Part shown: one piece after another, positions 25,270-50,402 of the stretch | How the letters are laid out: every line of letters starts with the position of its first letter | Position numbering within the stretch: position 1 is the first letter of the stretch | Origin: Eubacteriaceae bacterium | GTDB taxonomy: Bacteria; Bacillota; Clostridia; Eubacteriales; Anaerofustaceae | Length of the DNA stretch: 60,342 bases | NCBI GenBank assembly: GCA_009782875.1 | Contig: WRIE01000011.1 | Coordinates: 1-60,342 of the forward strand | Direction of reading: 5' to 3' | Made by a program: the position numbers and the translations under genes | The notes under the pieces: generated by a model | Database searches by the model: none | Told to the model about the DNA's origin: nothing | Seen by the model: only the letters and a program-made list of their open reading frames with translations

Positions 25270-26427
25270 ATGACTGAGGAACTGAAAAAACTATATGATG
25301 AAAGAGTCAATCGTTTCGTCACAACTGCTGACATCAAAGAACCCGACAGGGTTCCGGTAATGAGCCAAGTCTCAACTTGGGCAGTAAATTACTCAGGCAA
25401 CACTTTCGCTGGCCTTCTAGAGAATTATGAAGCTGAGGCAGAAGCATACACAAAGGCAAATGAAGGCTTCTATTATGACGGCATTAGAAGTGTTGGCATC
25501 AACCATTTGACAAAAACTGGTTTTGAGCTTGAAAGCAAGACGTTTTTTATCTCTCCAAACGGCATTACGCTTCAGCACCATGAGTCATCCAGTATGCGAG
25601 AAGATGAGTATGATGAGTTTCTGGGCGATCCCATGCGATTTATCGCTGACAAAATTGCTGTGAGGAAAGTCCGGGCCTTCCAGCTTGATGATGAAGAGCA
25701 AGTTTACCAAAACCTCTCGAAATTGTTTGACAAGTCGGCAGAGATCCGCAGAAACACCATTGTAGGGCCAACTGTCGTCGAAAAGACTGGGCTGCCATTT
25801 TGTGTAGCCGGCTCAGTTGCGCATCCAATGGATGACTATTTTGACTTTATCCGCGGATTTAAACCCACAATGACAGACCTCCGAAGACGCCCGGAAAAAG
25901 TTCTTGCAGCCGTGGAGGCGTTGATGCCTTACCATGAGCGCAATATTCCGAAAGCAGAACGCCCGCCACTGCCATGGGTGCAAGACACGCACCACATCGC
26001 AACTTTCCTTACAAAACAATTGTTTGAGCTAGTTTATTGGCCATTCTACAAAAAAACCGTAGAAGGGTGTTTCGCTGTCGGGACAAAACTATTCTCCCAC
26101 TTTGAGGGCTCATGGGAACAGCATTATGATTTCCTTGAAGACCTGCCAAAGACAAGTGTAGTTGCAATTGTGGAGCCAACGGATGTTGCAGGTTTCAAGG
26201 CGCGTTTTGCCGACAGGTTTACTATCGCCAGTGGCGTGTCTACATCTATGCTTCGGTTCATGTCTGCTGATGAGTGCATCGAAGAGGCAAAACGTGTAGT
26301 CGGCATCGCCGCTCCAGGCGGAGGGTTTGTCTTTGCCACTGAAAGGTCCTTGATTTCTCCAAATGACGCGAACCCGGATGTGATACGCGCAGTGAACAAA
26401 TACATCTCAGAGAATACATATTACTAA
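25270..26427 (+). CDS. Uroporphyrinogen decarboxylase-family methyltransferase
   Basis: A 385-residue protein of the URO-D superfamily (PF01208, COG0407), with a TIM-barrel layout. It is not HemE: it lacks the typical HemE N-terminus. Members of this branch (MtaA, MtbA, CmuA and aryl-ether demethylases) move methyl groups to or from corrinoids. At the position of the zinc-binding H-x-C of MtaA it reads S-H-F-E-G-S-W, so metal ligation may differ. AGGAGGAA precedes the ATG. It has its own promoter and terminator, and hgcA starts 530 bases downstream on the same strand. A role in methyl supply to HgcA is inference. Confidence 0.82.
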   Translation: MTEELKKLYDERVNRFVTTADIKEPDRVPVMSQVSTWAVNYSGNTFAGLLENYEAEAEAYTKANEGFYYDGIRSVGINHLTKTGFELESKTFFISPNGITLQHHESSSMREDEYDEFLGDPMRFIADKIAVRKVRAFQLDDEEQVYQNLSKLFDKSAEIRRNTIVGPTVVEKTGLPFCVAGSVAHPMDDYFDFIRGFKPTMTDLRRRPEKVLAAVEALMPYHERNIPKAERPPLPWVQDTHHIATFLTKQLFELVYWPFYKKTVEGCFAVGTKLFSHFEGSWEQHYDFLEDLPKTSVVAIVEPTDVAGFKARFADRFTIASGVSTSMLRFMSADECIEEAKRVVGIAAPGGGFVFATERSLISPNDANPDVIRAVNKYISENTYY

Positions 26428-26889: not shown

Positions 26890-26938
26890 TTGACAATAAT
26901 CAAAGTGTGCTGTATGCTTTATATAGATGAATATCTAT
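26890..26938 (+). promoter_or_regulatory. hgcAB promoter with a start-site dyad
   Basis: TTGACA (26890-26895), a 17-base spacer and TATGCT (26913-26918) form a strong promoter. The dyad ATAGAT-N4-ATCTAT (26923-26928 and 26933-26938) covers the predicted start of transcription, where a repressor could act. ArsR-type proteins control hgcAB in some species, but no such gene lies nearby, so the regulator is unknown. Confidence 0.65.
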
Positions 26939-26958
26939 GTAAGGCGAGGTCTATTTGC

Positions 26959-27963
26959 ATGAGTAGCCACACGACAAATGAACCTGTCAAACAGGTTCCA
27001 ACGAAACTAGCTTTTGGGGATTTCCTTGGCGCATGGAAAGCCAGGTGGGGCATTGGGCGCATGGATTACACTATCAAGCCAGGCCTTTATGCAGTGGGCA
27101 AGCCAGACAGTGAATCTCCAGTTTTGGTCAGCGCAAATTATAAATTGACTTTCGACGCTTTAAGGAAAAACCTTGGCGGTTTGGATTGTTGGATAATGAT
27201 CTTGGATACAGGCGGGATAAATGTCTGGTGCGCAGCAGGAAAAGGCGCTTTCGGCACGGACGAGTTGGTTAACCGCATTGAAAAGTCGGATATTTCAAAA
27301 TACGTGTCTCACAAACAGCTTGTTTTGCCCCAATTAGGCGCGGCAGGCGTGAGCGCTTATGAGGTGGCGCGGAGCTCAGGATTCAATGTCGTCTACGGGC
27401 CGGTTAGGGCAAAGGATATAAAAGAATTTATCAGAGAAGGATATAAAGCAACTGAAGAAATGCGCATGGTCAATTTTACCCTATGGGATAGAATGGTATT
27501 AGTGCCGATGGAGCTGGTTCCGGCATTGAAAAAATCATTGCCATTTTTTATAGGTATGGCCCTTTCAAGCACTTTTTTAGAAAAGCCTTTTGGCAAGGCT
27601 GATTATGCAGGTTTGGCAATGGCTATAGCAAGCGGCTCTATTATAACCCCCGTCCTGCTCCCTGCAATTCCCGGAAAGGCGTTTTCGCTGAAAGGGTGGA
27701 TTGTTGGGCTTGGTGGCACAGCAGCCCTCGTTGGCGCATTTGGCGGCTATAGGAAAGGCAGCCGGATCCTGTCGATGGGCCATTTGTTGTTGTTCCCTGC
27801 AGTTTCTTCATATTTGGCATTGAATTTCACAGGGTCGACAACATACACTTCCCATTCAGGAGTCAACAAGGAAATGAGAAAAGCATTGCCGTTGATTGTT
27901 GGCTCAGCTTTCGTTGGCGCTGCTTTGGCGATTGGCGCATATTTATTTAGGAGTGATAAGTGA
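26959..27963 (+). CDS. hgcA: HgcA, corrinoid protein of mercury methylation
   Basis: A 334-residue protein, close to the 338 residues of the Desulfovibrio desulfuricans ND132 protein. The N-terminal corrinoid-binding domain has the diagnostic cap helix N-V-W-C-A-A-G-K-G at residues 88-96; Cys91 is the expected lower cobalt ligand. Other hallmarks follow: T-D-E-L-V-N-R-I-E, L-V-L-P-Q-L-G-A, V-Y-G-P-V-R-A. From about residue 185 there are four to five membrane segments, then the family block L-N-F-T-G-S-T-T-Y-T-S. HgcA transfers a methyl group to Hg(II). ATG 26959 was chosen because GAGGT lies 8 bases before it and the length fits. hgcB overlaps the 3' end. Confidence 0.96.
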   Translation: MSSHTTNEPVKQVPTKLAFGDFLGAWKARWGIGRMDYTIKPGLYAVGKPDSESPVLVSANYKLTFDALRKNLGGLDCWIMILDTGGINVWCAAGKGAFGTDELVNRIEKSDISKYVSHKQLVLPQLGAAGVSAYEVARSSGFNVVYGPVRAKDIKEFIREGYKATEEMRMVNFTLWDRMVLVPMELVPALKKSLPFFIGMALSSTFLEKPFGKADYAGLAMAIASGSIITPVLLPAIPGKAFSLKGWIVGLGGTAALVGAFGGYRKGSRILSMGHLLLFPAVSSYLALNFTGSTTYTSHSGVNKEMRKALPLIVGSAFVGAALAIGAYLFRSDK

Positions 27964-28265
27964 AAGTATTAAGATATCTTGAGGATGTTTCGACACTGGA
28001 ACTTAATGGGGAAAAATGCACAGGTTGTGGCAGTTGCATTGATGTTTGCCCCCATGGAGTATTTTGTATTGTTGGCCAAAAAGCGTTCGTGGCAGACAAG
28101 GGGTTATGTATGGAATGTGGGGCTTGCGCCCTAAATTGCCCAACCAAAGCCATCGAAGTAATTGCAGGAGTTGGTTGCGCGTCTGCTATAATCGCCAGCT
28201 GGTTCAGCGGCAAAGAGCCTGCTTGCGAATGTGCGGAAGATGGCTGCAAACCCGGATGCTGTTGA
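27960..28265 (+). CDS. hgcB: HgcB, ferredoxin partner of HgcA
   Basis: A 101-residue 2x[4Fe-4S] ferredoxin. The cluster motifs are Cys20-23-26-30 and Cys50-53-56-60 (both C-x2-C-x2-C-x3-C-P). The conserved lone Cys73 sits in G-V-G-C-A, followed by a membrane-proximal A-I-I-A-S-W-F-S-G-K-E-P, and the chain ends with the Cys100-Cys101 pair that is a hallmark of HgcB. It reduces the HgcA corrinoid and probably passes Hg(II) to it. GTG 27960 overlaps the hgcA stop by 4 bases, indicating coupling. Confidence 0.96.
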   Translation: MKVLRYLEDVSTLELNGEKCTGCGSCIDVCPHGVFCIVGQKAFVADKGLCMECGACALNCPTKAIEVIAGVGCASAIIASWFSGKEPACECAEDGCKPGCC

Positions 28266-28330
28266 TTTTTAGAGTGGGAGAATATGATAGCAGGCTATAT
28301 AATCTACAGGGTAGATGCAAAAACAAAAAA

Positions 28331-28370
28331 AAGCAATGGCTTCAATTAGGTATCCATTGCTTCTTTTTAT
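28331..28370. terminator. Bidirectional terminator between hgcB and mgtA
   Basis: AAGCAATGG (28332-28340) pairs with CCATTGCTT (28355-28363). The plus strand has CTTTTTA after it and the minus strand has eight T residues, so it can stop both hgcAB and the convergent mgtA transcript. Confidence 0.85.
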
Positions 28371-33552: not shown

Positions 33553-34398
33553 TTATGCCAAGGCATCCGCATCGCCCATCAGCCAGGCAAATTCCTCTAT
33601 TGTGCGCGGCTTCTTTTCTGATCGCTTGCATAACCCAGCTTTTTGGATATGCTCAAATGCCTCATACAGCAACGGTTTTTTTAGCCCTGCCTTTTTCAAA
33701 GTGTCTTCTTGGCTAAATACTTCATCAACATTGGCATCTGCAATTATTTCCCCATCAGCAAACACAATAGCCCTGTTAGCAATTCGATATGCAAAATTAA
33801 CATCGTGGGTAGACAATATGATCGTTATGCCAGACTCGTTCAAAGCAAGGAGTATGTGTTCCAGCGCGTCAGTGTTCTGCGGGTCAAGCGAAGCTGTTGG
33901 CTCGTCTAAGAGTATAATGCTGGGCTGCATAGCCAAGATGTCGGCAATGCTTACCCGCTTTTTCTCCCCGCCGCTAAGATAGTGCGGGGCATAATCCCTA
34001 TAGCGGAGTATATCCATTTGGACCAGGGACTCTTCCACCCGTTTTTCAACCTCTTCTTTTGAAAGCTCCAAGTTCAAGGGCCCAAAACTGACCTCGCTTT
34101 CCACTGTCCCTGCGATGATCTGGCTGTCTGGGTCCTGGAATACAAGGCCTACGGCTTGCCTCAAAGTGAATGTGTCTTTTTTGTTGCCCTTCAACTCTAC
34201 GCCATTATAGACGATCTTCCCGCTTTGAAGCTTCAACACCCCATTGCAACACAGAAAAAAAGTGCTTTTGCCAGCTCCGTTGCTTCCAAGCACAGCCACT
34301 AGCTCGCCTTCGGCAAAGGAAACGGAAACATTGTTTAATGCCCTGTACTTGCCATCGTATTGATAGCTTACATTCTCGATTTTTAACAAGTCACTCAT
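33553..34398 (-). CDS. cbiO: Cobalt ECF transporter ATPase CbiO
   Basis: A 281-residue ABC ATPase: Walker A G-S-N-G-A-G-K-S-T, Q-loop F-Q-D-P, signature L-S-G-G-E-K-K-R-V, Walker B I-I-L-L-D-E-P and the H-loop S-T-H-D. It powers metal uptake with CbiQ, encoded directly upstream. It is the last gene of the long cbi/hem operon. The pair serves cobalt import for corrin synthesis in this context. Confidence 0.9.
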   Translation of the reverse strand: MSDLLKIENVSYQYDGKYRALNNVSVSFAEGELVAVLGSNGAGKSTFFLCCNGVLKLQSGKIVYNGVELKGNKKDTFTLRQAVGLVFQDPDSQIIAGTVESEVSFGPLNLELSKEEVEKRVEESLVQMDILRYRDYAPHYLSGGEKKRVSIADILAMQPSIILLDEPTASLDPQNTDALEHILLALNESGITIILSTHDVNFAYRIANRAIVFADGEIIADANVDEVFSQEDTLKKAGLKKPLLYEAFEHIQKAGLCKRSEKKPRTIEEFAWLMGDADALA

Positions 34399-34410
34399 TA
34401 ATTAATTCCC

Positions 34411-35325
34411 TCACAATGGCATTAAACTCAATGCAGCGCCCACAGCCAGCAAAACTGCGCAGACCCACCCTTGGGTCATGGTTATTTTTGTGCTGTGTTC
34501 CAAAAACCTGATGCCCGTGTCATAGCAGCGGCTTTCCATAGCATCAAAGTTCTTTGCGGCAAAATGGTAGCTGCGGGCTAGCAAGTTCGCATAAACCATG
34601 CCAGTTGAGCGTAAGCTCGTTTTATAATCCTTCATGCCAAGCCTGCTTTTCGCTGCGTCATGCATCTCATGGTGCAAAGACATTAGTATAAAAATGTATC
34701 TGTAAACCAGGTACATCAAGTCAATGATGGCATCAGGGCAATGGCTTCGCCTCAGGACTGCGATGATGTCTGGCATTCGCGTTGTTACACTCAAAATGCA
34801 CAGGCAGCTTACAGCCCCTAAAGCCCGGGACACAACGAGGGCAGCCATTGCTTGGGAGCTCGTTGTAGCATAGAACCATATCCCCAGCGCCCTAAAGCTG
34901 GCAACACCCTCAATTTGCGTCATTGACACCGAAAAAAGCAGGGACAACCCGCTCAATAGCAAAAAGCCCAAAGGGAGCATCAATATCTGCAAATAGTGGT
35001 CGAAGTCCATTCCGCCAGCATAGACGGCAATAACAGGCGCAATTGCCATAAGGAAGATTCCTGTATAGCAGTTCTTAGAGGATATGCATATTGCAATCGA
35101 TGCCAAGACTGTCCAGAACTTCAATGACGCGTTCACGCCATTGAGTTTTGAGCTTTGGGCTATGATATCGATAGGCAATGGATGGTCATGTTGATGCCTG
35201 CTAAAGTGCCAGAAGAATGCCCCCAATGCAATGCAAGCTGCAGCGAGGATTGTGTTGGGCGCCTTGCCTGCAAAGAGAAACCAAACAAATGCCATGGAAA
35301 GAATGCCTGTCACCATGCTGCCCAC
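34411..35325 (-). CDS. cbiQ: Cobalt ECF transporter membrane protein CbiQ, with N-terminal extension
   Basis: A protein of about 304 residues. From near residue 53 (I-D-I-I-A-Q-S-S-K-L-N-G-V-N-A-S-L-K-F) it matches CbiQ, including the ATPase-contacting cytoplasmic helices (S-R-A-L-G, then S-R-L-G-M-K). The first 50 residues add two hydrophobic segments and H-Q-H-D-H, which ordinary CbiQ lacks. The substrate-specific subunits CbiM and CbiN are absent around it. The start is GTG 35325 or ATG 35316 after GGGAGG. Whether the extension replaces CbiN is unknown. Confidence 0.8.
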   Translation of the reverse strand: MGSMVTGILSMAFVWFLFAGKAPNTILAAACIALGAFFWHFSRHQHDHPLPIDIIAQSSKLNGVNASLKFWTVLASIAICISSKNCYTGIFLMAIAPVIAVYAGGMDFDHYLQILMLPLGFLLLSGLSLLFSVSMTQIEGVASFRALGIWFYATTSSQAMAALVVSRALGAVSCLCILSVTTRMPDIIAVLRRSHCPDAIIDLMYLVYRYIFILMSLHHEMHDAAKSRLGMKDYKTSLRSTGMVYANLLARSYHFAAKNFDAMESRCYDTGIRFLEHSTKITMTQGWVCAVLLAVGAALSLMPL

Positions 35326-35392
35326 ATCCTCCCGCCTGCTCTAAACCGCTTTGACTTCATTTTATAAAGCACCTCTTTGTTCTCTTCTAGTT

Positions 35393-36025
35393 CTAGTCCC
35401 GATCTGTTATTTCATACATCAAAGCATTGACTATCGCGGCCGCCACATTGCTTCCGCCTTTTCTCCCCCTTGCCACAATATGGGGCGCCTTAAGCGATAA
35501 AACCAGCTCTTTTGACTCGACGACATTCACGAAACCTACCGGCACGGCGATAACCAATGCAGGATCGAGCACGCCTGCCTCAACTAATTCGCAAATCCTT
35601 ATCAGGGCAGTGGGAGCGTTGCCCACTGCAAACACCAGCGGGCCTGCAACTGTCCTTGCTGCATAATCCACTGCCTCTCTTGATCTTGTATGGCCGCTTT
35701 CTTTTGCGATTTGGGCTACTTCAGGGGAGTCTACAAAACAGAGGACTTCGCATCCAAGTTTGGCAGCGGCCCTTTTGTTTATCCCTGAGCTCCCCATTTG
35801 GGTGTCAGTGATGATAGCCGCGCCGTTTCTGAGGGTGTTTTGGGCTGACGCCACTACCCCTTCAGAAAAAAAAAGGTTGTCCGCATAGTCAAAATCAGCT
35901 GATGTATGTATAACCCTCTTGAGGATATTAGCGTTCTCTTTTTTGAATTCCTTTCCCTCCAGCTCGGACGATATAATTTCGAAGCTACGGTTTTCGATCT
36001 CCATCGGATTTGTGATCATGTCCAC
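35393..36025 (-). CDS. cbiC: Cobalt-precorrin-8 methylmutase
   Basis: A 210-residue protein with the catalytic His in R-V-I-H-T-S-A-D-F-D-Y and the blocks T-D-T-Q-M and G-N-A-P-T-A-L, all typical for CbiC/CobH. It moves the C11 methyl to C12, giving cobyrinate. The GTG start at 36025 (AGGAG at good spacing) overlaps cbiA; ATG 36019 is the alternative. Confidence 0.93.
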   Translation of the reverse strand: MDMITNPMEIENRSFEIISSELEGKEFKKENANILKRVIHTSADFDYADNLFFSEGVVASAQNTLRNGAAIITDTQMGSSGINKRAAAKLGCEVLCFVDSPEVAQIAKESGHTRSREAVDYAARTVAGPLVFAVGNAPTALIRICELVEAGVLDPALVIAVPVGFVNVVESKELVLSLKAPHIVARGRKGGSNVAAAIVNALMYEITDRD

Positions 36026-37389
36026 TGCGCTTTGCTCCTAGTCTTATTGTATTCAAAACATAGATTTATAAAATTCTCTGCAAAAACCTTGTTGCCCCAA
36101 AAATGAAGATGCTGGTTGCCTGCGAAGACAGATCCTTGGGAGCGGACCGCGCTAAAAGTATTGCCGTTATGCTTGGTTACGATAAAACAATCGCCATCAT
36201 AAAAGCACTCTGCATAGGTGAAAAAATGCGCATTTATCGACTCTCCGGCTTTGCAAAGCAGGTTGTCGCGGGCTGCCTCCATTCTGCCGTATCCGAAGTT
36301 TTGCAGCTGCTTGCCCATACGGGAGCTGCCTTCGAGAACCCCTGCCATGCTGTATTGCCCGCCTGGCATGTCTTCAAGGCTTTCAAGCAGATACCTATAT
36401 CCGCCACATTCCGCATAGATTGGAATACCTGCATCAGCAGCGGTTTTTATGCTGTTTCTCATTGGAACATTCGCTTCAAGCTCCTTTCCGTACAGCTCTG
36501 GGTATCCGCCCCAAAAAACCACTCCGTCCGCATCAGCCGGCAGGGCGCTATCATGGATAGGGGAGAAAAAGCGGATATTTGCCCCTAGAGTTTCAAATAG
36601 CTCATGGTTGTCTTCATACCAGAAGGAGAAAGCCTCATCGCTTGACACATAAAGGTTGATATTGCCTTTTCTTGCAGGTTGCATGATAGGTCTTTCGGGG
36701 GCGTCCAAAGGAGGGGCTTGGCTAGCTATTTCCATTAGTGCCCCAATATCAACATGATTTTTAAAGTTCTCAGCCAGCAATGCGATTTTTTCTTTCAAGT
36801 CTTCAATCTCGCTTGGTTGGAACAGCCCCAAGTGCCTGGATTCGATGCTTGCCCCAGCCACTTTTGGCATATAGCCAACGACTTTGATGCCTATCCTCTC
36901 TTCTATCAGGTCTTTGTAAAAGCGGTACATGCCTTCTGTCACATTGTTCAACAGCACAGCCTTGATGTTGTTCGCCTCAAAATCCAAAAATCCCTTTATC
37001 AGCGCGCATACAGACAACGCTTCGCCTTTGGGGTTGGCAATGAGGACCACTGGGGTGTTTGTAGCCAGTGACACGTGGTTGCTTGAAGCGTAGCTGGTGT
37101 TTCCCATTCCGTCATAAAGGCCCATGACACCCTCGATGACAGATATTTTCCCCTCTGTGTTTGTTGCAAGACTCCTTGCCACCCCTTCTTCACCCATGAG
37201 GTATATATCCAAGTTGCGGGTGGCGACGCCAGCGGCTTGTGTATGGAACATCGGGTCGACATAATCAGGGCCGCATTTGAAAGCTGCCGCTTCTTCTCCC
37301 ATTGAAACAAGCGCAGCCAAAAAAGCGCTTGTCAATGTTGTTTTGCCGCTGCCGCTTCCAGTGGCGGCAAACATAATCCGTTTACCCAT
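36016..37389 (-). CDS. cbiA: Cobyrinate a,c-diamide synthase
   Basis: A 457-residue enzyme. The N-terminal ATP-binding domain starts R-I-M-F-A-A-T-G-S-G-S-G-K-T-T; the C-terminal glutamine amidotransferase domain has its Cys in Y-A-E-C-G-G. It amidates cobyrinate at a and c with glutamine. The ATG at 37389 overlaps the cbiET stop by 8 bases (ATGGGTAA). Confidence 0.93.
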   Translation of the reverse strand: MGKRIMFAATGSGSGKTTLTSAFLAALVSMGEEAAAFKCGPDYVDPMFHTQAAGVATRNLDIYLMGEEGVARSLATNTEGKISVIEGVMGLYDGMGNTSYASSNHVSLATNTPVVLIANPKGEALSVCALIKGFLDFEANNIKAVLLNNVTEGMYRFYKDLIEERIGIKVVGYMPKVAGASIESRHLGLFQPSEIEDLKEKIALLAENFKNHVDIGALMEIASQAPPLDAPERPIMQPARKGNINLYVSSDEAFSFWYEDNHELFETLGANIRFFSPIHDSALPADADGVVFWGGYPELYGKELEANVPMRNSIKTAADAGIPIYAECGGYRYLLESLEDMPGGQYSMAGVLEGSSRMGKQLQNFGYGRMEAARDNLLCKAGESINAHFFTYAECFYDGDCFIVTKHNGNTFSAVRSQGSVFAGNQHLHFWGNKVFAENFINLCFEYNKTRSKAQWT

Positions 37390-38545
37390 TTGTGCCACAT
37401 CCATTTCCAGTTATTATATATACAGGGTTCTGGGCCATCATCAAATCATAGCTGCCAACCCTCTTTGATTTTGCGGTGTTTACACAGACGATGTCGATAT
37501 CTTGGAGCCTAAAGCGCCCAAAAATTTCAACTACTTGGGCAAGTGTCTGCAGTGTGATGGCGTTTGCTACAATCCTTGCAGTTTTGTTCGCTGACAATAT
37601 AGAGCTAATTATGCCTTCCATGTTCCCTGAGCTGCCACCGATAAAAACTTTGTCTGGCGCTGACAAGCCAGCTAGAGCCCCTGGGGCTTGCCCATACACG
37701 ACTTGCATGTTAAACGCCCCATGTTTTGCCGCATTCTCTTTTACCAACTTGCAAGCGCCCTCGTTAGCCTCGATGGCATACACATAGCCCGAGTAAGCAG
37801 CCCTAGCCATCTCCACTGCCACAGAGCCTGTCCCTGCGCCAATGTCATATAGTGTGTCATTTGGGCTTATCCCCAGTTTTGCCACAGACAGCCAGCGGAT
37901 TTCCTCTTTCGTCATTGGGGTTTTTGAGCGTGTGAAATCACTGTCTTTTAGTGGCAGCCTGTCCTCTATTGCGCCAGGGTTTTGGATGTACATAACTGAC
38001 AAGTTGTCAAAAACTAAATTTTTCAGCTCTTTTGCGCTGCCTGATGTAATCTTTTCTTCTGGAAAAGAGAGCCTTTCGCCTACGGTGATTATGGCATGTC
38101 CCAAGCCATGGCTATCAAGGGAAGCGCAAACGCTCTGGACAGTGTTGGCGCCTCCAACAAGCGCAAAGACCTCTTTGTTGTAGGCAGCTTTGGCTACGAT
38201 GTTCGCATCCCTTCCATGGAGGCTTGCAAAAACCGCATTTTCATACGTTGCCTTGATTTTTGCGCAAAAGTATTGGACAGAGCTGATCCCAGGGATTAGT
38301 TGGATGTCATACAAGCCTCCAAGATCCATTACAAAGGTTTTTGCCACACTGTAAAAACCAGTGTCTCCGCTGGCGAGCACTGTGGTGTCCTCAAAAGGAG
38401 GCTCTTTAAGCGCGGCAAGCAAATCCCCCAATGGCAGCTCCCGGGTGTTGTAGACTTTCTGGGATGCCTTGATGGAAGACGATGCCATTCCAGTAAGCAA
38501 AGACTCGTCTCCCGGGCCATTTCCAACTACAATGAGTTTTGGCAT
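37382..38545 (-). CDS. cbiET: Cobalt-precorrin-7/8 methyltransferase-decarboxylase, CbiE-CbiT fusion
   Basis: A 387-residue fusion. Residues 1-200 are a CbiE tetrapyrrole methylase (G-N-G-P-G-D-E-S-L-L-T and A-S-G-D-T-G-F-Y-S). The rest is CbiT (L-Y-D-I-G-A-G-T-G-S-V-A-V-E for SAM binding). Together they methylate C5 and C15 and decarboxylate the acetate side chain. Such fusions are also known as CobL. Confidence 0.93.
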   Translation of the reverse strand: MPKLIVVGNGPGDESLLTGMASSSIKASQKVYNTRELPLGDLLAALKEPPFEDTTVLASGDTGFYSVAKTFVMDLGGLYDIQLIPGISSVQYFCAKIKATYENAVFASLHGRDANIVAKAAYNKEVFALVGGANTVQSVCASLDSHGLGHAIITVGERLSFPEEKITSGSAKELKNLVFDNLSVMYIQNPGAIEDRLPLKDSDFTRSKTPMTKEEIRWLSVAKLGISPNDTLYDIGAGTGSVAVEMARAAYSGYVYAIEANEGACKLVKENAAKHGAFNMQVVYGQAPGALAGLSAPDKVFIGGSSGNMEGIISSILSANKTARIVANAITLQTLAQVVEIFGRFRLQDIDIVCVNTAKSKRVGSYDLMMAQNPVYIITGNGCGTNG

Positions 38546-38551
38546 ATGCCC

Positions 38552-38908
38552 CTAGTCCTTTATCCGCTCCACGATAATATCGGCAATCCTCTCGTCAATG
38601 CCCAAAGTGCCCGTCAATTCGTATTTGATGTTTGGATGCCCCACAGAGCACTCTGCAAGGATTTTGGGGATGTCTTGTTGCAAGTGGATGCCCATGAACA
38701 GAAAATAGGGGACGACCTTTAATTGGGTGACCCCATGGGCATCCATTGTCTCAAACCCCTTCGCAACAGTTCGATCAGAGAATTCCATAAAAGCGCATTC
38801 AATGATCGTGTCTGGCGTTTTTTCCTTTACAATAGTTAATACTTGGTCTAGAGTGTCTTCTGTTTCTGTTGCCCTGCTTCCGTGGGCCAATACTAATACG
38901 CCTTTCAT
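38552..38908 (-). CDS. cbiX: Sirohydrochlorin cobaltochelatase, short CbiX type
   Basis: A 118-residue single-domain chelatase. The catalytic His is in L-A-H-G-S-R and a second in M-G-I-H-L-Q-Q-D-I. The length is that of the small CbiX form that works as a homodimer. It inserts Co2+ in sirohydrochlorin, committing the intermediate to the anaerobic pathway. It overlaps hemL by 4 bases. Confidence 0.9.
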   Translation of the reverse strand: MKGVLVLAHGSRATETEDTLDQVLTIVKEKTPDTIIECAFMEFSDRTVAKGFETMDAHGVTQLKVVPYFLFMGIHLQQDIPKILAECSVGHPNIKYELTGTLGIDERIADIIVERIKD

Positions 38909-40200
38909 TGTAGCGCTCCTTCTTCTTTTAGCTTTTTTAGTGCATTTCTAGCTGCTTGCAGTGTTGCATCAATATCGTCTTGGGAATGGGCAAAGCTGAC
39001 AAACATTGCCTCAAACTGTGAAGGAGCCAAGTAGACACCTTCTTGGAGCATTTTGGAGAAAAACTGCGCATACAAGCCAGTATCTGCCAGCTTCACCGAG
39101 GCGTAGCTATTTGCAGACTCGATTCCAAAAAAAACGCATGCGAGTGAGCCAATTTGGTTTACACAAACTTCCAGGCCGAATTTTTTGGTGATTTCTCTTA
39201 GCCCTTCTGCCAATGCCCCCCCAAGCTGGCCTATAGAATTGTATACATCGCCGTTTTCCAAAGCCTCTAGTTGGGCAATGCCCGCAGCCATGGCTACAGG
39301 GTTGCCGGAGAGGGTGCCTGCTTGGTATACAGGGCCCAAAGGGGAGATTAGCTCCATGATTTCACGCTTGCCGCCGTAAGCGCCAACCGGCATGCCGCCG
39401 CCGATAATTTTGCCGTATGTTGCCAAATCGGCTTTGACATTAAAGTATTCTTGGGCTCCCCCTTTGGCCAGCCTGAAACCTGTGATGACTTCATCGAACA
39501 CCAGCAGCGCCCCATATTTGTCACAAAGAGCCCGAAGGCCTGCAAGATAGCCTTCATCTGGCAAAACAATTCCCATGTTGGCTGCCACAGGCTCTATGAT
39601 GGCACAAGCGACACTGTACTTTTGCATCAAGGCTTCGACTGCCCCAAGATCGTTGTAAGGGGCGACTAGGGTGTCGGCAGCGACATTCATGCCCACCCCT
39701 AGGCTGTCTGCTTGGCCGGTGGTAAGGGCGCCGGAGCCTGCTTTCACCAACATGCTGTCCACATGGCCATGGTAGTTGCCTTCAAATTTAATTATTTTGT
39801 CTCTTTTTGTGTATGCCCTCGCCAGCCGCAACGCGCTCATGACTGCTTCTGTGCCTGAGTTGACCATGCGTACCATGTCGATGCCGGTGAACTGCGTGAT
39901 TTTGTCTGCCAACAAGACTTCAGCCTCTGTGGGCGCCCCAAAACTCAAGCCGTTTTGGGCTGCTTTGATGACAGCCTCCCTTATTGCATCGTTGTTATGC
40001 CCCAAGACCATAGGTCCCCATGATCCGACGTAATCTATGTAGCTGTTTCCATCAACGTCTTCCACCCGGCATCCACTTGCTTTGCTTATAAACAACGGGT
40101 TTCCCCCGACGGCCTTGAATGCCCGGACTGGGCTATTGACGCCGCCGGGGATCATAAGCTGGGCTTTTTCAAAAAGAGACTTTGATTTTTCGTTTGCCAT
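38905..40200 (-). CDS. hemL: Glutamate-1-semialdehyde 2,1-aminomutase
   Basis: A 431-residue class III aminotransferase-type enzyme starting M-A-N-E-K-S. It has P-G-G-V-N-S-P-V-R-A-F, D-E-V-I-T-G-F-R, and the PLP lysine in T-Y-G-K-I-I-G-G-G. It makes 5-aminolevulinate from glutamate semialdehyde. The ATG at 40200 shares its A with the hemB stop (TGATG). Confidence 0.96.
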   Translation of the reverse strand: MANEKSKSLFEKAQLMIPGGVNSPVRAFKAVGGNPLFISKASGCRVEDVDGNSYIDYVGSWGPMVLGHNNDAIREAVIKAAQNGLSFGAPTEAEVLLADKITQFTGIDMVRMVNSGTEAVMSALRLARAYTKRDKIIKFEGNYHGHVDSMLVKAGSGALTTGQADSLGVGMNVAADTLVAPYNDLGAVEALMQKYSVACAIIEPVAANMGIVLPDEGYLAGLRALCDKYGALLVFDEVITGFRLAKGGAQEYFNVKADLATYGKIIGGGMPVGAYGGKREIMELISPLGPVYQAGTLSGNPVAMAAGIAQLEALENGDVYNSIGQLGGALAEGLREITKKFGLEVCVNQIGSLACVFFGIESANSYASVKLADTGLYAQFFSKMLQEGVYLAPSQFEAMFVSFAHSQDDIDATLQAARNALKKLKEEGALQ

Positions 40201-41180
40201 CAACCAATGTCCCCATGCTTTATAGCCCGCGCCAGCTCTTGGGCGTAATAGGTTATCAAGATGTCTGCCCCAGCCCTGAAGACTGCAATTGCGCTTTCGC
40301 ACATTATGGCGTGTTCGTTGATCAAATCTGCAGCGGCAGCCGCTTTCACCATGGCATATTCGCCGCTGACGGCATATGCCGCGATAGGGATGTCAACCTC
40401 TGGCCTAGCTAGAGAAATGATATCCAAGCAAGAAAGCGCGGGCTTGATGATAATTGAATCAGCGCCTTCCATGATATCGATTGATATCCGTTTTAGAGCT
40501 TCCCTGCTGTTGTGGTAATCCATCTGGTAAGACTTCCTGTCCCCAAATTGGGGGGCTGAGCCAGCAGCATCCCTGAATGGACCATAGAACGCGGATGCGT
40601 ACTTTGCGCTGTAGCTCATAATAGGCACATTCGCCCATCCGCTTGTGTCAAGGCCTGCCCGCATGGCGGCGACTGTCCCATCCATCATGCCTGAGGGGGC
40701 GACCATGTCTGCCCCAGCTTCTGCATGTGACACTGCTGTTTTTGCCAGAAGGGGCAATGTGCTGTCGTTGTCCACATCCTCATCCACGATCAAGCCGCAA
40801 TGGCCGTGGGATGTGTACTCGCAAAGGCATACATCTGTGATTAGATATGCGCTTTTGCCGAATTGCTGTTTGATGCTCCTCAAAGCTTGTTGGACAACAC
40901 CATCGTCGCTGTATGCCCCAAGGCCGGCTTCGTCTTTGTGCTCTGGTATGCCAAAGAGCAAGAACGAGTTGACTCCTGCCTCCAATGCTGCTCCTACCCC
41001 GGCAGCGATTGTGTCAGGGCTATATCTGGTTTGGCCTTCCATCGAAGGGAGGGGCTCGATGACGCCTTTGCCCTCCCTGACAAACATGGGGTAGACCAAA
41101 GCGTCGGCAGACACCCTGGTTTCCCGCGACATCCGCCTTAAGAGGTCGCTTGAGCGAAGCCTTCTTGTCCTGATTTCCAT
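40200..41180 (-). CDS. hemB: Porphobilinogen synthase
   Basis: A 326-residue enzyme. The metal loop reads D-V-C-L-C-E-Y-T-S-H-G-H-C-G, with three cysteines of the zinc-dependent type. The Schiff-base lysines are in S-A-K-Y-A-S and I-I-K-P. It joins two 5-aminolevulinates. AAGGAG lies 8 bases before ATG 41180, and the start is inside the end of cobA-hemD. Confidence 0.96.
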   Translation of the reverse strand: MEIRTRRLRSSDLLRRMSRETRVSADALVYPMFVREGKGVIEPLPSMEGQTRYSPDTIAAGVGAALEAGVNSFLLFGIPEHKDEAGLGAYSDDGVVQQALRSIKQQFGKSAYLITDVCLCEYTSHGHCGLIVDEDVDNDSTLPLLAKTAVSHAEAGADMVAPSGMMDGTVAAMRAGLDTSGWANVPIMSYSAKYASAFYGPFRDAAGSAPQFGDRKSYQMDYHNSREALKRISIDIMEGADSIIIKPALSCLDIISLARPEVDIPIAAYAVSGEYAMVKAAAAADLINEHAIMCESAIAVFRAGADILITYYAQELARAIKHGDIG

Positions 41181-42640
41181 ACACACAACTCCTTAATTTT
41201 TTCTGCCACGCCCTCAATTGTGGCCTCATCGCTGAGAATTGCATTTATGCCATATGAGCGCGCCTTTGCAGCTGTCGACTCCCCGATGCAAACTGCGTCA
41301 AGGCTAGCCAAATCGACGCCTGCCGCATTTTGGGCGAACCAATCGACTGCTGAAGATGAGGTAAATGCCGCATAGTCGATCGCTCCGATATCAGCATCCC
41401 CGCCGCTATAGGCTTTTTCGTAAATTGGGATATCGTCAAACTCAACGCCATGGGCAGCCAAGATGCCGGGCAAATCGCTTCCTGCGTCTTTAGCCCTTGC
41501 GAGCAGCACCTTCTCCCCTGGTTTTGCCAGTCCTGATAGGCCCTTGCCCAAAGCGGCGCCATTAAACACGCTGGGGCAATAGTCGGCGAACAAACCCCAT
41601 TTTTCAACTGCCTTTTCAGTCTGTGAGCCAACGCAAGCGACTTTCAAGTGGGCAAGGGTCCTTATGTCGATTCTGCGCTGGGCTAATGACTCGAAAAATG
41701 TATCGACCCCCGTTGCGCTGGTGAACGCTACCCAAGAGTAGCTATTGATGCCTGCAAACGCTCTATCCAGCCCATTAGGATTTGGCGCAAATCTGGCCGG
41801 TGCAAGCTCGATGGTTTCGCATCCGAGCTCTTTGAGCCGCAGTGCCAATTTTGAAGCGCCAGGGGTTGCCCTTCCAACCGCTACCCGCTTGCCAAATAAT
41901 GGCCTTTTGCTAAACCAGTCGTAGCGCCCGGACAACGAGCTCACCTCGCCGACGATTATCAACGCAGGGGAGGCGATGTTATGCGATGCGGCTAAAGAAG
42001 GCAGAGTGGACAGTGTGCCTTCCACCTTGCGCTGCTTCGGGGTTGTGGCGTTTTCCACTACAGCAGCTGGCCTGCCAGGATCCATCCCTGCTTTTAAGCA
42101 ACCGTCACATATGGAAGCCAATGCCCCGACACCCATTAAAAACACCAAAGTGCCTTTGGCCCCTGCAAGGGCGCTATAATCGATATTTGTAGGCTCGTTG
42201 TTTTTCCCGTGGCCGGTTACCACATGGAATGAGGAGGCATAGTTCCTGTGTGTCACAGGTATGCCCGCATATGCCGGCCCCGCAATTGCAGAAGTGATGC
42301 CGGGCACAACCTCAAATGGCACGTTGTGCTCGATTAAAAGCTCAAGTTCCTCGCCCCCACGCCCAAAAACGTAAGGATCCCCGCCTTTGAGCCTGACAAC
42401 GTTAAGCCCTTGAAGCCCCCTGTCCAATAAAAGCCGGTTAATCTCGTCCTGGGGAACAGGATGGTTTCCCGCGTTTTTTCCCACATTTATTAGCTCAGCT
42501 TCCCTGGGCATCAATGCCAAGATATCCTCTCCCACAAAACGGTCGTACAAAACGACATCAGCGTTTTTTACAGCCTCATATCCTTTCAAGGTCAACAAGC
42601 CCAAGTCCCCCGGGCCTGCCCCAACCAAAACTACTGCCAT
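41138..42640 (-). CDS. cobA-hemD: Uroporphyrinogen-III methyltransferase/synthase fusion
   Basis: A 500-residue fusion. Residues 1-245 are SUMT ([11 protein letters not shown] and [14 protein letters not shown]). Residues 250-500 are uroporphyrinogen-III synthase (HemD), less conserved, with V-A-F-T-S-A-T-G-V. It makes uroporphyrinogen III and methylates it at C2 and C7 to precorrin-2. CobA-HemD fusions are common in Firmicutes. Confidence 0.94.
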
Positions 42641-43524
42641 TATCCTTTCAGCCTCCCTGCCAATTCTTTTGCAAGCCCATCCCCCAAAAATTGCGCCCGC
42701 GACGAGTCTCCGGCAACTTTCGCCTTTGCCAAGCTGCCATCAGCATCCACTACCATGCCTGATAGCAACAGCTCGTCGCCATTTAATTGCCCATAAACAG
42801 CCACAGGCGATGAGCATCCCCCAGAGAGGGCAGTTAAAAACTGGCGCTCAGCCAAAGACACAATTTGGGAGGAATGGGAATGGAAAGCGTCCAAGTATGG
42901 ATGCTCTTCGCCAGACCTGCCTTGGACCGCCAAAATTCCTTGGGAGCCAGAGGGGATCATTTCCTCCGGTGTAAACACTTTTGAAATCCGATCCTGCAAG
43001 CCAAGGCGCGCAAGGCCTGCTTGGGCGAGTATCAAGGCGCAAAATTCCCCGCTGTCAAGTTTTTTAAGCCTTGTTTGAACATTGCCCCTGACTGGGGCAA
43101 TGCTATATCCTTCATATAGTTGCTCAAATTGGACTTTTCTCCTGATGCTCGCTGACCCCACCGGTTTGGACTTGTCCAACTTGCTGGACCCTTTAGGCAG
43201 CACTAGGGCGTCAAAAGGCGCCTCGCGCTCTGAGAGGGCCACTATGGGCAAGCCGGGGGTCTGCTCATAAGGCATGTCTTTGTAGCTATGCACAGCAAGG
43301 TCAATAGCGCCATCGAGGAGGGCTTGCTCGATTTCTTTGATAAACAGACCTTTTCCGCCGATGGCATCCAAGGTTTTGTCAAGAATCCTGTCCCCAGTGG
43401 TTTTTATTGTCACAAGCTCAAAAGTGATTTGCGGGTATTTTGAGCTTATGGCCGCCATGGCTATATTTGCTTGGACCACAGCCAGCTGGCTTTCCCTGCT
43501 TCCAATACGTATATGCTTTTTCAT
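42640..43524 (-). CDS. hemC: Hydroxymethylbilane synthase
   Basis: A 294-residue enzyme starting K-K-H-I-R-I-G-S-R-E-S-Q-L-A. The cofactor-bearing Cys is in L-S-G-G-C-S-S-P-V. It links four porphobilinogens. ATG 43524 overlaps the upstream stop (ATGA), showing coupling. Confidence 0.96.
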   Translation of the reverse strand: MKKHIRIGSRESQLAVVQANIAMAAISSKYPQITFELVTIKTTGDRILDKTLDAIGGKGLFIKEIEQALLDGAIDLAVHSYKDMPYEQTPGLPIVALSEREAPFDALVLPKGSSKLDKSKPVGSASIRRKVQFEQLYEGYSIAPVRGNVQTRLKKLDSGEFCALILAQAGLARLGLQDRISKVFTPEEMIPSGSQGILAVQGRSGEEHPYLDAFHSHSSQIVSLAERQFLTALSGGCSSPVAVYGQLNGDELLLSGMVVDADGSLAKAKVAGDSSRAQFLGDGLAKELAGRLKG

Positions 43525-44744
43525 ATGCCCATGCAACCTCTAATTGTTTTTGCCATTTCCCTGACACCTGCATGGTCGCCCGCTTTTGAAACGACGCCTG
43601 CGATAAAAGCGCCGTCCTCGGCAATGGCGGGGAAATAAAACGTGCATTCTTCGCGGCAGTCAGCAACAGACACAGGTATGCCCATTGATTTGGCTTCAAG
43701 CATCACATTATGGTTGGCTTGCCTGTCATTTGTCGCTGCAAGCGCTATAAACGGCTTGTATGCGGCAATGTCGCCATAGCAATACTCTCTTGCCACAAGC
43801 TGGATATCTCCCTGCTCTGCAGCTTGCTGGACTTTGGCGGTTGCCTCGGGCGATACAACCAGGACTTTTGCCCCAAAGCTGACCAAGGTTTTTATGCGCC
43901 GCTCTGCTATTTCCCCAGCACCGGCAACCAAGGCTTTTTTGCCAGCCAAATCCACAAACAATGGGAAGAACCTGCTGTTTTTTTCCATTGCTTTTTTGCT
44001 GGTGTCGAAGAGGTCAAGCAATTCTTCAAGCAAGTATCCTTTTTCAGCAGGGGTAGGGCGGGAGATGGCGATAGTTGCCGCCCCAACTGATTCCGCTGCA
44101 GAGACTTTCTCGGCAAAACCTCCTGCGTTTCCGGATTCTTTCGTGACTAGGAATTTTGCTTGGACCATTTTTAGCATCGCCCTGTTAATATCCTCACTAA
44201 ACGGCCCTTGCATACAAATCAGGTTTGACTGCTTGTAGCCTAAAGCCATAGCTTTATGTATAGAATCCGCCATTGGCAGCAAACGGACATAAAAACGATC
44301 AGCAAAGCTTTTTATATGGGTAAATGCCTCCAACTGGCTAGATCCGATTGCAAGCAATGCTTTTCCATCACTTTTCTCCAAGATTTCAGCAGCGGCTATA
44401 GCGTCTGGCACAAAAGCCACACCTGCTGCTGCGTCACCATCAGGCCGCCGCAACCTGATATACTTAGAGCTGGAGGCTCTGCATGCCAGCTGGATGTTTT
44501 GCGTGGCGTCCAATGCGTATGGATGGGTGGCGTCAACTACAAAGTCATAATCCCCATCTCCAATAAGCTTTGACATGCCTTCCACATCAAGCTTGCCTGA
44601 CACGACGCCAACACTCCCGTTTTCCTCTGCCAGGCTCTTTCCAAAATCCGTAGCCACTGACAATGTCACGCTGTGGCCGCCTCTGCCCAAAGAGTCTGAC
44701 AAAACGCGGCTTTCGCTGGTGCCGCCAAAAACCAGGAATTTCAT
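43521..44744 (-). CDS. cbiJ-sirC: Precorrin-6A reductase fused to precorrin-2 dehydrogenase
   Basis: A 407-residue fusion. Residues 1 to about 250 are CbiJ (F-G-G-T-S-E-S-R-V-L near the start, D-A-T-H-P-Y-A, and T-K-E-S-G-N-A-G-G-F). From about 258 a second NAD-binding unit begins (L-F-V-D-L-A-G-K-K-A-L-V-A-G-A-G-E-I-A-E-R-R), the N-terminal domain type of Met8/CysG/SirC. So one polypeptide covers an early step (precorrin-2 to sirohydrochlorin) and a late reduction. No chelatase domain follows. Confidence 0.9.
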   Translation of the reverse strand: MKFLVFGGTSESRVLSDSLGRGGHSVTLSVATDFGKSLAEENGSVGVVSGKLDVEGMSKLIGDGDYDFVVDATHPYALDATQNIQLACRASSSKYIRLRRPDGDAAAGVAFVPDAIAAAEILEKSDGKALLAIGSSQLEAFTHIKSFADRFYVRLLPMADSIHKAMALGYKQSNLICMQGPFSEDINRAMLKMVQAKFLVTKESGNAGGFAEKVSAAESVGAATIAISRPTPAEKGYLLEELLDLFDTSKKAMEKNSRFFPLFVDLAGKKALVAGAGEIAERRIKTLVSFGAKVLVVSPEATAKVQQAAEQGDIQLVAREYCYGDIAAYKPFIALAATNDRQANHNVMLEAKSMGIPVSVADCREECTFYFPAIAEDGAFIAGVVSKAGDHAGVREMAKTIRGCMGI

Positions 44745-45469
44745 ATCCTATATCCCCTTGCTGTCACGAGCTTCCCTCCAATGACTCTAGTGGCCGAGTT
44801 TCCAATAATCACAGTTGTGAACATGTCCACTTGCGCGCTTGACAGCTCTTCAAGGGTCAAAACCAATGCTTGCGAGTCTTCCCCCCGCAGCGCGTTTCGC
44901 ACATATCCGCATTTTGTGCCGCCGGGTTTGTGGCGCAATGCTATTTGGCAAGCCTTCATTAGATAGTCGCTCCTCTTTTTGCTGGACGGGTTGTAAATGC
45001 ATATTGCCATATCAGCCATGTTGCATAAATCAAGCCTTTTTTCGATTACTTCCCATGGTGTCAGCAAATCTGACAAGCTGATTACCGCAAAGTCGTTAGC
45101 CAAGGGGGAGCCCAAAATCGCTGCTGCTGAAATTGCGGCCGTGATTCCTGGCACTACCTCGACCTCAAGGCTCGGGTGTGCTTCAGCCAGCTCGTAGAGC
45201 AGTGTAGCCATGCCGTATATTCCAGCGTCTCCGCTGGAGACGACACAAACTTTCTTGCCGGAAAGCGCCTCTTGGATGGCTGTTTTGCACCGCTCGTTTT
45301 CACCAGTCATTCCTGTGGCGATCAACTCCTTGCCGCTGGCAAGCTCGCCCATTAGCTTCATGTAGCCTGAATAGCCTACGATACAGTCACAATCGAGGAT
45401 AACTTCCCTTGCTCTTGGAGCCAGGTATTCAGCATCCCCGGGACCAATCCCAACTGCATACAATTTCAT
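44741..45469 (-). CDS. cbiH: Cobalt-precorrin-3B C17-methyltransferase
   Basis: A 242-residue tetrapyrrole methylase: A-V-G-I-G-P-G-D-A-E-Y-L-A, V-S-S-G-D-A-G-I-Y-G-M, V-P-G-I-T-A-A and C-I-Y-N-P-S-S-K-K-R. It methylates C17 with ring contraction. It overlaps cbiJ-sirC by 4 bases. Confidence 0.94.
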   Translation of the reverse strand: MKLYAVGIGPGDAEYLAPRAREVILDCDCIVGYSGYMKLMGELASGKELIATGMTGENERCKTAIQEALSGKKVCVVSSGDAGIYGMATLLYELAEAHPSLEVEVVPGITAAISAAAILGSPLANDFAVISLSDLLTPWEVIEKRLDLCNMADMAICIYNPSSKKRSDYLMKACQIALRHKPGGTKCGYVRNALRGEDSQALVLTLEELSSAQVDMFTTVIIGNSATRVIGGKLVTARGYRI

Positions 45470-46494
45470 CAGGTCATTCCTCCTGTTGCCGCTTTTGCTA
45501 AAGCTCTGTCTTTATACATCAGCCAGCGCCAATACTTGCTAATATGGTCGCTGACAATGCTTTCGATCGTCAAGATGCTCTCCCGGGGCAATTCGATCTG
45601 CCCCCCTGATATATCATCGATTGTGTAAAGGGTGGCGCCTGGGATTTGGGCAACTTGCGGGTCGATGTCCCTGGGCACAGCCAAGTCGACGAATATCCTG
45701 GCGCGGCTGCCAAGCCTTGCTATTTCATCATATGAGAGGGTGTAGTGGGGGCTTGTAGTCGCGCTAATGACCAAATCCGCCTCTTGGATCGATCTGTACC
45801 GGTCGGCGTAGCTGATAGCGCAAGCCATATCCGGCACTTGCACCTCGCCCCGCTTGTATTGGCGCACAGTCACAGAGACATTGGCATTTTCTTGGACCAG
45901 CAATTCCGCCATCAGCCTGCCCATTTGCCCATTCCCGATGACAACCGCATTTATCCCGCCAAGGCTTGTGGCTTCGCTTAATTTTTCTATTGTTTTGCCC
46001 GGCACTGAGTCAATGCCCAGTGTCCTGAGCACTACATTGGTTTTTATCGCTTTCGCTGCTTGGATCGCCGTGTTAAACATTGTCTCAATATAGCTGTCGG
46101 TGCAGCCGGCTTGCCTGGACAGCTCCAAGGCCTCCCTGACTTGGGTGATAACTTGGTCATCGCCCATAACTTGCGAGTCAAGCCCTGAGGCCATCCGGCA
46201 CAAATGCTCTAGTGCATAGTCTCCTGCCCTTTGGGTGAACAAGTGGCCATACTCCCCATATCCTCCGCCGAGCTCGTCACACAACAATTTCGCAGGATCG
46301 ATAAACCCGTATTCAGCCACAGTCAAGTATAGCTCTGTCCTGTTGCAAGTGGTTATTGCAACACACCCCCCTGCTATGCCCTTGTTTACAAGGGAGGCCA
46401 GGATCCTTTGAGTTTTTTCTTTGGTGATCGCAAACTTTTCTCGAATTTCTAAATTTGCCGATGTGTGGTCAAGTCCTGTCATCAACAGTTTCAA
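45469..46494 (-). CDS. hemA: Glutamyl-tRNA reductase, short C-terminus
   Basis: A 341-residue protein with the catalytic Cys50 in T-T-C-N-R-T-E-L-Y, G-L-D-S-Q-V-M-G-D-D-Q-V, and the NADPH-binding V-I-G-N-G-Q-M-G. It reduces glutamyl-tRNA to the semialdehyde for HemL. Most enzymes have about 400-450 residues with a C-terminal dimerisation domain; here the chain stops shortly after the start of the spinal helix. TTG 46494 (GGAGGG upstream) or ATG 46482 is the start. Confidence 0.9.
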   Translation of the reverse strand: MKLLMTGLDHTSANLEIREKFAITKEKTQRILASLVNKGIAGGCVAITTCNRTELYLTVAEYGFIDPAKLLCDELGGGYGEYGHLFTQRAGDYALEHLCRMASGLDSQVMGDDQVITQVREALELSRQAGCTDSYIETMFNTAIQAAKAIKTNVVLRTLGIDSVPGKTIEKLSEATSLGGINAVVIGNGQMGRLMAELLVQENANVSVTVRQYKRGEVQVPDMACAISYADRYRSIQEADLVISATTSPHYTLSYDEIARLGSRARIFVDLAVPRDIDPQVAQIPGATLYTIDDISGGQIELPRESILTIESIVSDHISKYWRWLMYKDRALAKAATGGMT

Positions 46495-48251: not shown

Positions 48252-48252
48252 G

Positions 48253-50021: not shown

Positions 50022-50070
50022 CATTTCAAAGCACCAAAATTCCCTCAGTTTGGTGTTGCAAAAAAGCAAC

Positions 50071-50189: not shown

Positions 50190-50395
50190 GCAATACGAAC
50201 CATGAGGTTCGGTGCTGGCAGGTCTTTCGACTTAGACATCATCGCTTGTTCCAAACCTTCCCAGGATTATTTCCCAGTGGTTGTGTTAGCATTTGGAAAA
50301 CTCCGTCTTTACGGCAGCAGGACTGTTCAGGATTCTCACCTGATTCCCTTTTAACGCAGAAAGCGCCGTGGCGCAATCTGTGGCCAGCAATTATT
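50190..50395 (-). promoter_or_regulatory. Cobalamin riboswitch
   Basis: Minus-strand reading gives AATCAGGTGAGAATCCTGA, CAGTCCTGCTGCCGTAAAG, CCACTGGGAA and the B12 box AAGTCGAAAGACCTGCC in canonical order. It should bind adenosylcobalamin or a relative and switch off the 17-gene cbi/hem operon through the terminator that follows. Confidence 0.93.
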
Positions 50396-50402
50396 TGCCA
50401 CC

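What the first reader, a model, noticed from the sequence alone, without database searches (positions are those of the whole stretch)
26959..28265. hgcAB mercury-methylation gene pair
The overlapping genes encode a corrinoid protein with the cap-helix N-V-W-C-A-A-G-K (Cys91) plus membrane domain, and a ferredoxin with two 4Fe-4S motifs, lone Cys73 and a terminal Cys-Cys. Those are the diagnostic features of HgcA and HgcB, which make methylmercury. It predicts that this host methylates Hg(II).
Basis: partly seen in the sequence, partly recalled or inferred. Interest (0 to 1): 0.95.

Follow-up and report, generated by a model that had tools for sequence, protein, structure and literature searches.

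The report
Mercury-methylating gene pair hgcAB
This stretch carries the known gene pair hgcAB, which likely lets its bacterial host turn mercury into toxic methylmercury; in the family tree it groups with copies from termite-gut bacteria labelled as several different phyla, so the pair has probably been passed between unrelated gut microbes.

Summary
hgcA (26959-27963) and hgcB (27960-28265) overlap by 4 bases and score 435 and 119 bits against NCBI's curated HgcA and HgcB models (cut-offs 275 and 99), far below cut-off against the CFeSP paralogue. Cap helix NVWCAAGK with Cys91, five helices of the membrane domain (AlphaFold2), two 4Fe-4S motifs, Cys73 and terminal Cys-Cys are present. The model's best PDB match is the published HgcAB model (41% identity), then CFeSP. 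Mercury methylation itself is predicted, not shown. The published mechanism (SAM to cob(I)-HgcA to Hg(II)) would suit this host: no AcsC/AcsD was found in its 92%-complete assembly. Corrin-synthesis genes lie 5 kb away. Added here: in a 106-row tree the protein sits in a 43-row clade that holds all 16 termite-coded rows from the 80 best named loci (6 of 10 sample codes, 12 of 16 rows, confirmed as termite), under seven phylum labels once one likely mis-binned contig is dropped. That suggests cross-phylum transfer in termite guts. Some relatives sit in arsR-hgcAB-acr3 clusters; this copy stands alone between a URO-D-family gene and a Mg2+-ATPase gene. Overall: a new member of a known kind.

The parts
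26959..27963 (+). hgcA, corrinoid protein with membrane domain, 334 aa
   Evidence: NF040863 435.2 bits, cut-off 275; AlphaFold2 model pLDDT 84.8; best PDB match 9a0b
27220..27243 (+). codons of the cap-helix motif NVWCAAGK; Cys91 at 27229-27231
   Evidence: read from the sequence; same motif in 79 of 80 named loci
27481..27951 (+). codons of the five C-terminal helices (residues 175-206, 213-232, 242-260, 269-288, 299-331), predicted membrane domain
   Evidence: model helices; hydrophobic peaks in the same places, of which only three pass a stricter threshold
27960..28265 (+). hgcB, dicluster ferredoxin, 101 aa, with Cys73 and Cys100-Cys101; GTG start overlapping the hgcA stop
   Evidence: NF040864 118.8 bits, cut-off 99; cysteine list
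26890..26918 (+). promoter-like TTGACA-17-TATGCT before hgcA (weak)
   Evidence: 10 of 12 matches; the scan found 5 sites where shuffles give 3.8
28325..28368 (+). terminator-like hairpin with T run after hgcB (weak)
   Evidence: fold -12.4 kcal/mol, z -2.29, 6 of 200 shuffles as good; not picked up by the pattern scan
25270..26427 (+). URO-D-family protein upstream, same strand, 531 bases before hgcA; link to hgcAB not shown
   Evidence: PF01208 24.1 bits, cut-off 23.9; paralogues of 48-62%
33553..50069 (-). corrin-synthesis and cobalt-transport genes (cbiO, cbiQ, cbiC-like, cobB, cbiET, hemL, hemB, cobA-hemD, hemC, cbiJ, cbiH, hemA, cbiG, cbiF, cbiL, cbiD), inferred cofactor supply
   Evidence: NCBIfam best matches, some below cut-off
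50200..50403 (-). cobalamin riboswitch before the corrin-synthesis genes
   Evidence: RF00174 100.3 bits, gathering 31.5

Best explanation
The window encodes an intact HgcA-HgcB pair, which is predicted to methylate Hg(II) to methylmercury and was likely acquired from other gut bacteria. Shown by sequence: the residues and domains that define the enzyme are present. Inferred from the published enzyme (PMC11588087, PMC7305189): HgcB's two 4Fe-4S clusters would reduce HgcA's corrinoid to cob(I), SAM would methylate it, Cys91 would bind the cobalt from below, and the methyl group would pass to Hg(II), with HgcB's Cys73 and C-terminal cysteines likely handling the metal. Corrin would come from the nearby cbi genes. 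No AcsC/AcsD was found in the assembly, so the pair would not depend on the host's own CFeSP. Exchange between phyla in termite guts is inferred from the tree.
For: HgcA and HgcB above curated cut-offs, paralogue models below theirs. Key residues present. AlphaFold2 model with corrinoid domain plus five helices; Foldseek finds the HgcAB model 9a0b at E 5.4e-20, 41% identity, then five CFeSP chains, and nothing else at E 0.001 or better. One PF03599 protein in the host, HgcA itself. SAM as donor: abstract and Discussion of PMC11588087. Corrin genes and cobalamin riboswitch. Transfer: all 16 termite-coded rows in one 43-row clade with the window (support 94/95); 10 phylum changes among 19 labelled rows.
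Against: No expression or activity data exist for this host. The cap region is the poorly predicted part of the model (residues 92-94 below pLDDT 50), 9a0b is itself a computed model, and the overlay is loose (TM 0.52, rmsd 7.7). The assembly is 92.28% complete, so missing genes may be unsequenced; two divergent AcsB-like proteins and a 639-aa frame of the CODH/Prismane family are present. On contigs of 30 kb or more only 4 phyla and 4 changes remain, against a minimum of 3. Four termite codes are unconfirmed, L026 looks mis-binned, and inheritance shared with G004 of the same family is not rejected (p 0.08).
Confidence: 0.85

Rival explanations
1. The cross-phylum picture is a binning artefact: the termite-gut HgcA genes belong to one group of Clostridia and were binned into genomes of other phyla. 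The pair would still be hgcAB.
For: Several of the loci are on contigs of 3-9 kb. L026, labelled an archaeon, holds thiF, thiH and thiE genes and looks bacterial. Phylum labels are record titles that I did not test.
Against: Contigs of 37-208 kb labelled Treponema (L018, L019), Synergistaceae (L021), Desulfovibrio (L022) and Defluviitaleaceae (L016) carry clade members. Interphylum transfer of hgcAB is reported for permafrost in PMC7438021 (section read).
Confidence: 0.25
2. The pair's main cellular role is arsenic or another metal response, with mercury methylation as a side reaction.
For: arsR-type genes precede hgcA in 8 of 31 loci, acr3-like genes follow in 10 and arsC-like genes in 5 (5 of 8 ArsR and 2 of 10 ACR3 tested and over cut-off, 1 of 5 ArsC tested and below it). 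The link is discussed in PMC10349881 and PMC7438021 (passages).
Against: The window's copy has none of these neighbours. All residues needed for Hg methylation in ND132 are kept.
Confidence: 0.15
3. In this host the methyl group comes from a URO-D-family or pterin methyltransferase route rather than from SAM, with the upstream URO-D protein feeding HgcA.
For: The URO-D gene lies upstream on the same strand; 25 URO-D places are listed in the genome; a paralogue follows a pterin methyltransferase gene at G000:C4; MTHFR and FTHFS are present.
Against: 531 bases separate the genes; the URO-D gene is not among genes shared by the 31 hgcA loci; purified HgcAB uses SAM.
Confidence: 0.07
4. The pair is intact but silent or unused in this host.
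For: Promoter-like and terminator-like sites are no better, or hardly better, than chance; no regulator gene is adjacent.
Against: Both frames are open with all key residues conserved in a lineage that has diverged to about 70% from its nearest relatives.
Confidence: 0.1

Closest known systems
HgcA/HgcB of Pseudodesulfovibrio mercurii ND132 (computed HgcAB model 9a0b; families NF040863, NF040864)
   Same: Corrinoid domain, cap-helix Cys, five-helix membrane domain, dicluster ferredoxin with Cys73 and C-terminal Cys pair
   Different: 41% identity in the fold alignment; host is a Clostridia relative of Alkalibacter; HgcB starts at GTG inside the hgcA stop; no adjacent arsR
HgcA of termite-gut MAGs and digester Clostridia (e.g. 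L002, L003, L016, Acetivibrio mesophilus L006)
   Same: Same HgcA clade or its neighbours, 59-61% identity for L002, L003 and L006, 56% for L016, HgcB downstream
   Different: Some have arsR before or acr3 and arsC after the pair; the window does not
CFeSP large subunit (AcsC / CdhE; PDB 2h9a, 2ycl, 4c1n, 4djd, 9fzy)
   Same: Corrinoid-binding domain, 24-27% identity over 126-129 columns
   Different: Paralogue: model NF003195 gives 84.8 bits against a cut-off of 306; no cap Cys in CFeSP (passage of PMC7305189)
HgcAB-like fusion protein (NF043039)
   Same: Related domains
   Different: 201.1 bits against a cut-off of 285 for HgcA, and the window has two genes

Membership tests
HgcA | Score above the curated NF040863 cut-off (275 bits) | tested here: met
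   435.2 bits
HgcA | Cap-helix motif N(V/I)WCA(A/G)GK (as quoted in a passage of PMC10349881) | tested here: met
   NVWCAAGK, residues 88-95, Cys91
HgcA | Corrinoid domain followed by a five-helix membrane domain | tested here: met
   AlphaFold2 helices 175-206, 213-232, 242-260, 269-288, 299-331 and matching hydrophobic peaks; strict hydropathy gives three
HgcB | Score above the curated NF040864 cut-off (99 bits), next to hgcA | tested here: met
   118.8 bits, 4-base overlap
HgcB | Two CxxCxxCxxxCP motifs, Cys73, C-terminal cysteines | tested here: met
   positions 20, 50, 73, 100-101
HgcAB | Methylates Hg(II) | not testable with these tools
   needs a wet assay
CFeSP gamma subunit (AcsC/CdhE) | Score above the NF003195 cut-off (306 bits) | tested here: not met
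   84.8 bits over residues 37-161 only
HgcAB-like fusion protein | Score above the NF043039 cut-off (285 bits) | tested here: not met
   HgcA 201.1 bits, HgcB 52.2 bits

The most novel reading that the evidence does not exclude
Termite guts harbour their own hgcAB lineage, traded between Bacillota, Spirochaetota, Synergistota, Desulfovibrionales and others, in some hosts inside arsR-hgcAB-acr3 clusters. This lineage is the genetic basis of methylmercury made in insect guts, and it works in hosts that lack the CFeSP of the Wood-Ljungdahl pathway.
Probability: 0.45. Interest if true: 0.65.

Novelty: new member of a known kind. Interest (0 to 1): 0.45.

Why it matters
Methylmercury is a neurotoxin, and its known anaerobic microbial formation depends on hgcAB (established knowledge). 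Mercury-methylation genes in termites are already on record (passages of PMC5893877 and PMC7075563); the first says methanogens may be the dominant methylators in termite hindguts. If the clade seen here is real, gut bacteria of several phyla share one hgcAB lineage there, and assigning taxa from hgcA amplicons would fail. A title in reference lists (Limper et al. 2008; paper not seen) reports methylmercury production in the gut of Mastotermes darwiniensis. L022, a Desulfovibrio MAG coded Md513, carries a clade member, and passages of PMC12483993 tie Md513_bin60 to that termite. So the genetic link is testable. A host without AcsC/AcsD would also be a natural test of SAM against methyl-THF as methyl donor.

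Tried and rejected
CFeSP paralogue and fused HgcAB-like type: rejected by scores. A palindrome between the promoter-like site and the start (26919-26942) as a regulator's operator: not better than chance, reached by 25 of 300 shuffles of the 80 upstream bases and 103 of 300 of the 531-base intergenic stretch. URO-D gene as a conserved hgcAB partner: not among the genes shared by the 31 loci. MerB in the host: no hit, but no control genome rang either, so it proves nothing. Thermoplasmatota as a clade phylum: dropped because L026 looks mis-binned. Vertical inheritance shared by the window's genome and G004: neither shown nor rejected (p 0.08). Print searches (open-licence PMC papers only) listed no paper whose title or abstract start describes a termite-gut hgcAB clade; I did not open most of those listed. 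Podar et al. 2015, recalled as a survey of hgcAB in metagenomes, was looked up by its DOI and is not held, nor is the ArsR paper PMC10132117.

Full report
What is there. hgcA runs 26959-27963 and hgcB 27960-28265, overlapping by four bases. HgcA carries NVWCAAGK at residues 88-95 with Cys91. HgcB carries two CxxCxxCxxxCP motifs, Cys73 and Cys100-Cys101. HgcA scores 435.2 bits against NF040863 (cut-off 275) and HgcB 118.8 against NF040864 (cut-off 99). The fusion-type model (201.1 of 285) and the CFeSP gamma model (84.8 of 306) are not met.

Structure. An AlphaFold2 model on a 34-row alignment has mean pLDDT 84.8 and pTM 0.78; residues 1-7, 92-94 (in the cap region) and 292-297 are below 50. 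It shows a corrinoid domain followed by five helices. Foldseek finds 9a0b, the published HgcAB model (E 5.4e-20, 41% identity, TM 0.52, rmsd 7.7), then five CFeSP chains at E 1.1e-7 to 1.1e-5; nothing else reaches 0.001. 9a0b is itself computed, so the match confirms the family, not an experimental structure. By sequence, only CFeSP chains are found in the PDB copy, 4 distinct sequences.

Host. RpoB of the window's genome is 83% identical to its best hit outside, 81% to a MAG named Eubacteriaceae and 71-72% to three Alkalibacter species. So the host is a lineage of Clostridia near Alkalibacter; the habitat of its sample is not given. HgcA over the cut-off is in 5 of 67 genomes of its order: the host, G004 of its family and three of genus code g10. 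Two of those three (G057, G060) were placed in the tree and group with L027, labelled Acetobacterium.

Methyl-group metabolism. The assembly (3.19 Mb, 92.28% complete) has one PF03599 protein, HgcA itself, so neither AcsC nor AcsD was found. AcsB hits of 205-238 bits, seen in 8 of the 20 relatives searched, are missing from the host; it has two weak AcsB-like proteins, which score 262 and 229 bits against models with cut-offs of 800 and 809. FTHFS, MTHFR and pterin-binding proteins are present, and two proteins of the Prismane/CODH family, one in a 639-aa frame. The abstract and Discussion of PMC11588087 give SAM, not methyl-THF, as methyl donor. A host without CFeSP fits that, but incompleteness limits the inference. 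Corrin genes at 33553-50069 with a cobalamin riboswitch are a likely cofactor supply; the link to HgcA is inferred.

Relatives and transfer. All 80 gave an HgcA frame, 79 with NVWCAAGK and 77 with an HgcB-like frame next to it. Sixteen rows carry sample codes that I took as termite. Six of the ten codes are confirmed by passages: Nt197, Th196, Emb289, Lab288 and Cu122 in PMC7024585 (listing) and Md513 in PMC12483993; they cover 12 of the 16 rows. Pc512, Nc350, Aly426 and Po218 (4 rows) are inferred from the same style of naming as Md513; a search did not confirm them. All 16 lie in one 43-row clade with the window (support 94/95), together with 24 metagenome rows of unknown habitat that had been chosen as best hits of the window, L025 (habitat not checked) and G004. 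The termite-coded rows bear the labels Bacillota, Spirochaetota, Synergistota, Thermodesulfobacteriota, Chloroflexota, Actinomycetota, Pseudomonadota and Thermoplasmatota. The last (L026) is probably mis-binned, since its contig holds thiF, thiH and thiE genes. Ten phylum changes are needed among 19 labelled rows with eight labels, seven being the minimum; the window and G004 I labelled Bacillota myself. On the seven rows with contigs of 30 kb or more, four phyla remain and four changes are needed, three being the minimum. Interphylum transfer of hgcAB is already argued in PMC7438021 (section read); what I did not find in print is a gut lineage.

Neighbours. Among 31 loci, arsR-type genes precede hgcA in 8, acr3-like genes follow in 10 (four of these frames are under 200 aa) and arsC-like genes in 5. 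Of these, 5 of 8 ArsR and 2 of 10 ACR3 were tested and pass NCBIfam cut-offs; 1 of 5 ArsC was tested and matches below cut-off. Inside the gut clade only 4 loci have the arsR and 3 the acr3 (from the list). The association of hgcAB with ars genes is known (passages). The window's copy lacks all of them and sits between a URO-D-family gene and an mgtA-type gene with an M-box riboswitch.

Verdict. A genuine hgcAB pair, so a new member of a known kind. The added interest is the gut-linked lineage and a host in which AcsC and AcsD were not found. Methylation by this host is predicted, not shown.

Noticed in passing
window 25270-26427 and genome G000: The host is rich in URO-D-family proteins: 25 places listed (the window's own gene is not among them). 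The window's protein has nine relatives of 48-62% that look like paralogues from the same assembly (no source given), while the next best hit is 33%.
   Followed up: partly
L109 2361-4253 (G000:C50) and L110 2473-4359 (G000:C2): Two divergent AcsB-like proteins of about 630 aa, far below the curated cut-offs, in a genome where no AcsC/AcsD was found; by eye the second keeps CxxC..C..C and CGC cysteines like the ACS A-cluster.
   Followed up: partly
P0024 and P0040: HgcA homologues of 422 aa with a dicluster ferredoxin domain at the N terminus, unlike HgcB in its place in the chain.
   Followed up: no
P0002-P0111 rows of alignment A1: Most close relatives have a Cys-Cys-rich N terminus in HgcA that the window's protein lacks.
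   Followed up: no
L019 5892-7000 region: A Treponema-labelled HgcA on a 208-kb contig reads NVWCAAGE instead of NVWCAAGK.
   Followed up: no
L106 (G004, unnamed): Transposase-like and recombinase-like frames, named by eye, lie about 7 and 2.4 kb upstream of arsR-hgcAB; PMC7438021 reports finding none near hgcA.
   Followed up: no
window 31561-31719: M-box magnesium riboswitch on the minus strand upstream of the mgtA-type ATPase gene 28380-31124.
   Followed up: no
G000:C40 (L115): A cluster that by eye reads as the methyl branch of the Wood-Ljungdahl pathway (pterin methyltransferase, folD, metV, metF, lpd, gcvH, fhs) with a divergent FTHFS.
   Followed up: partly
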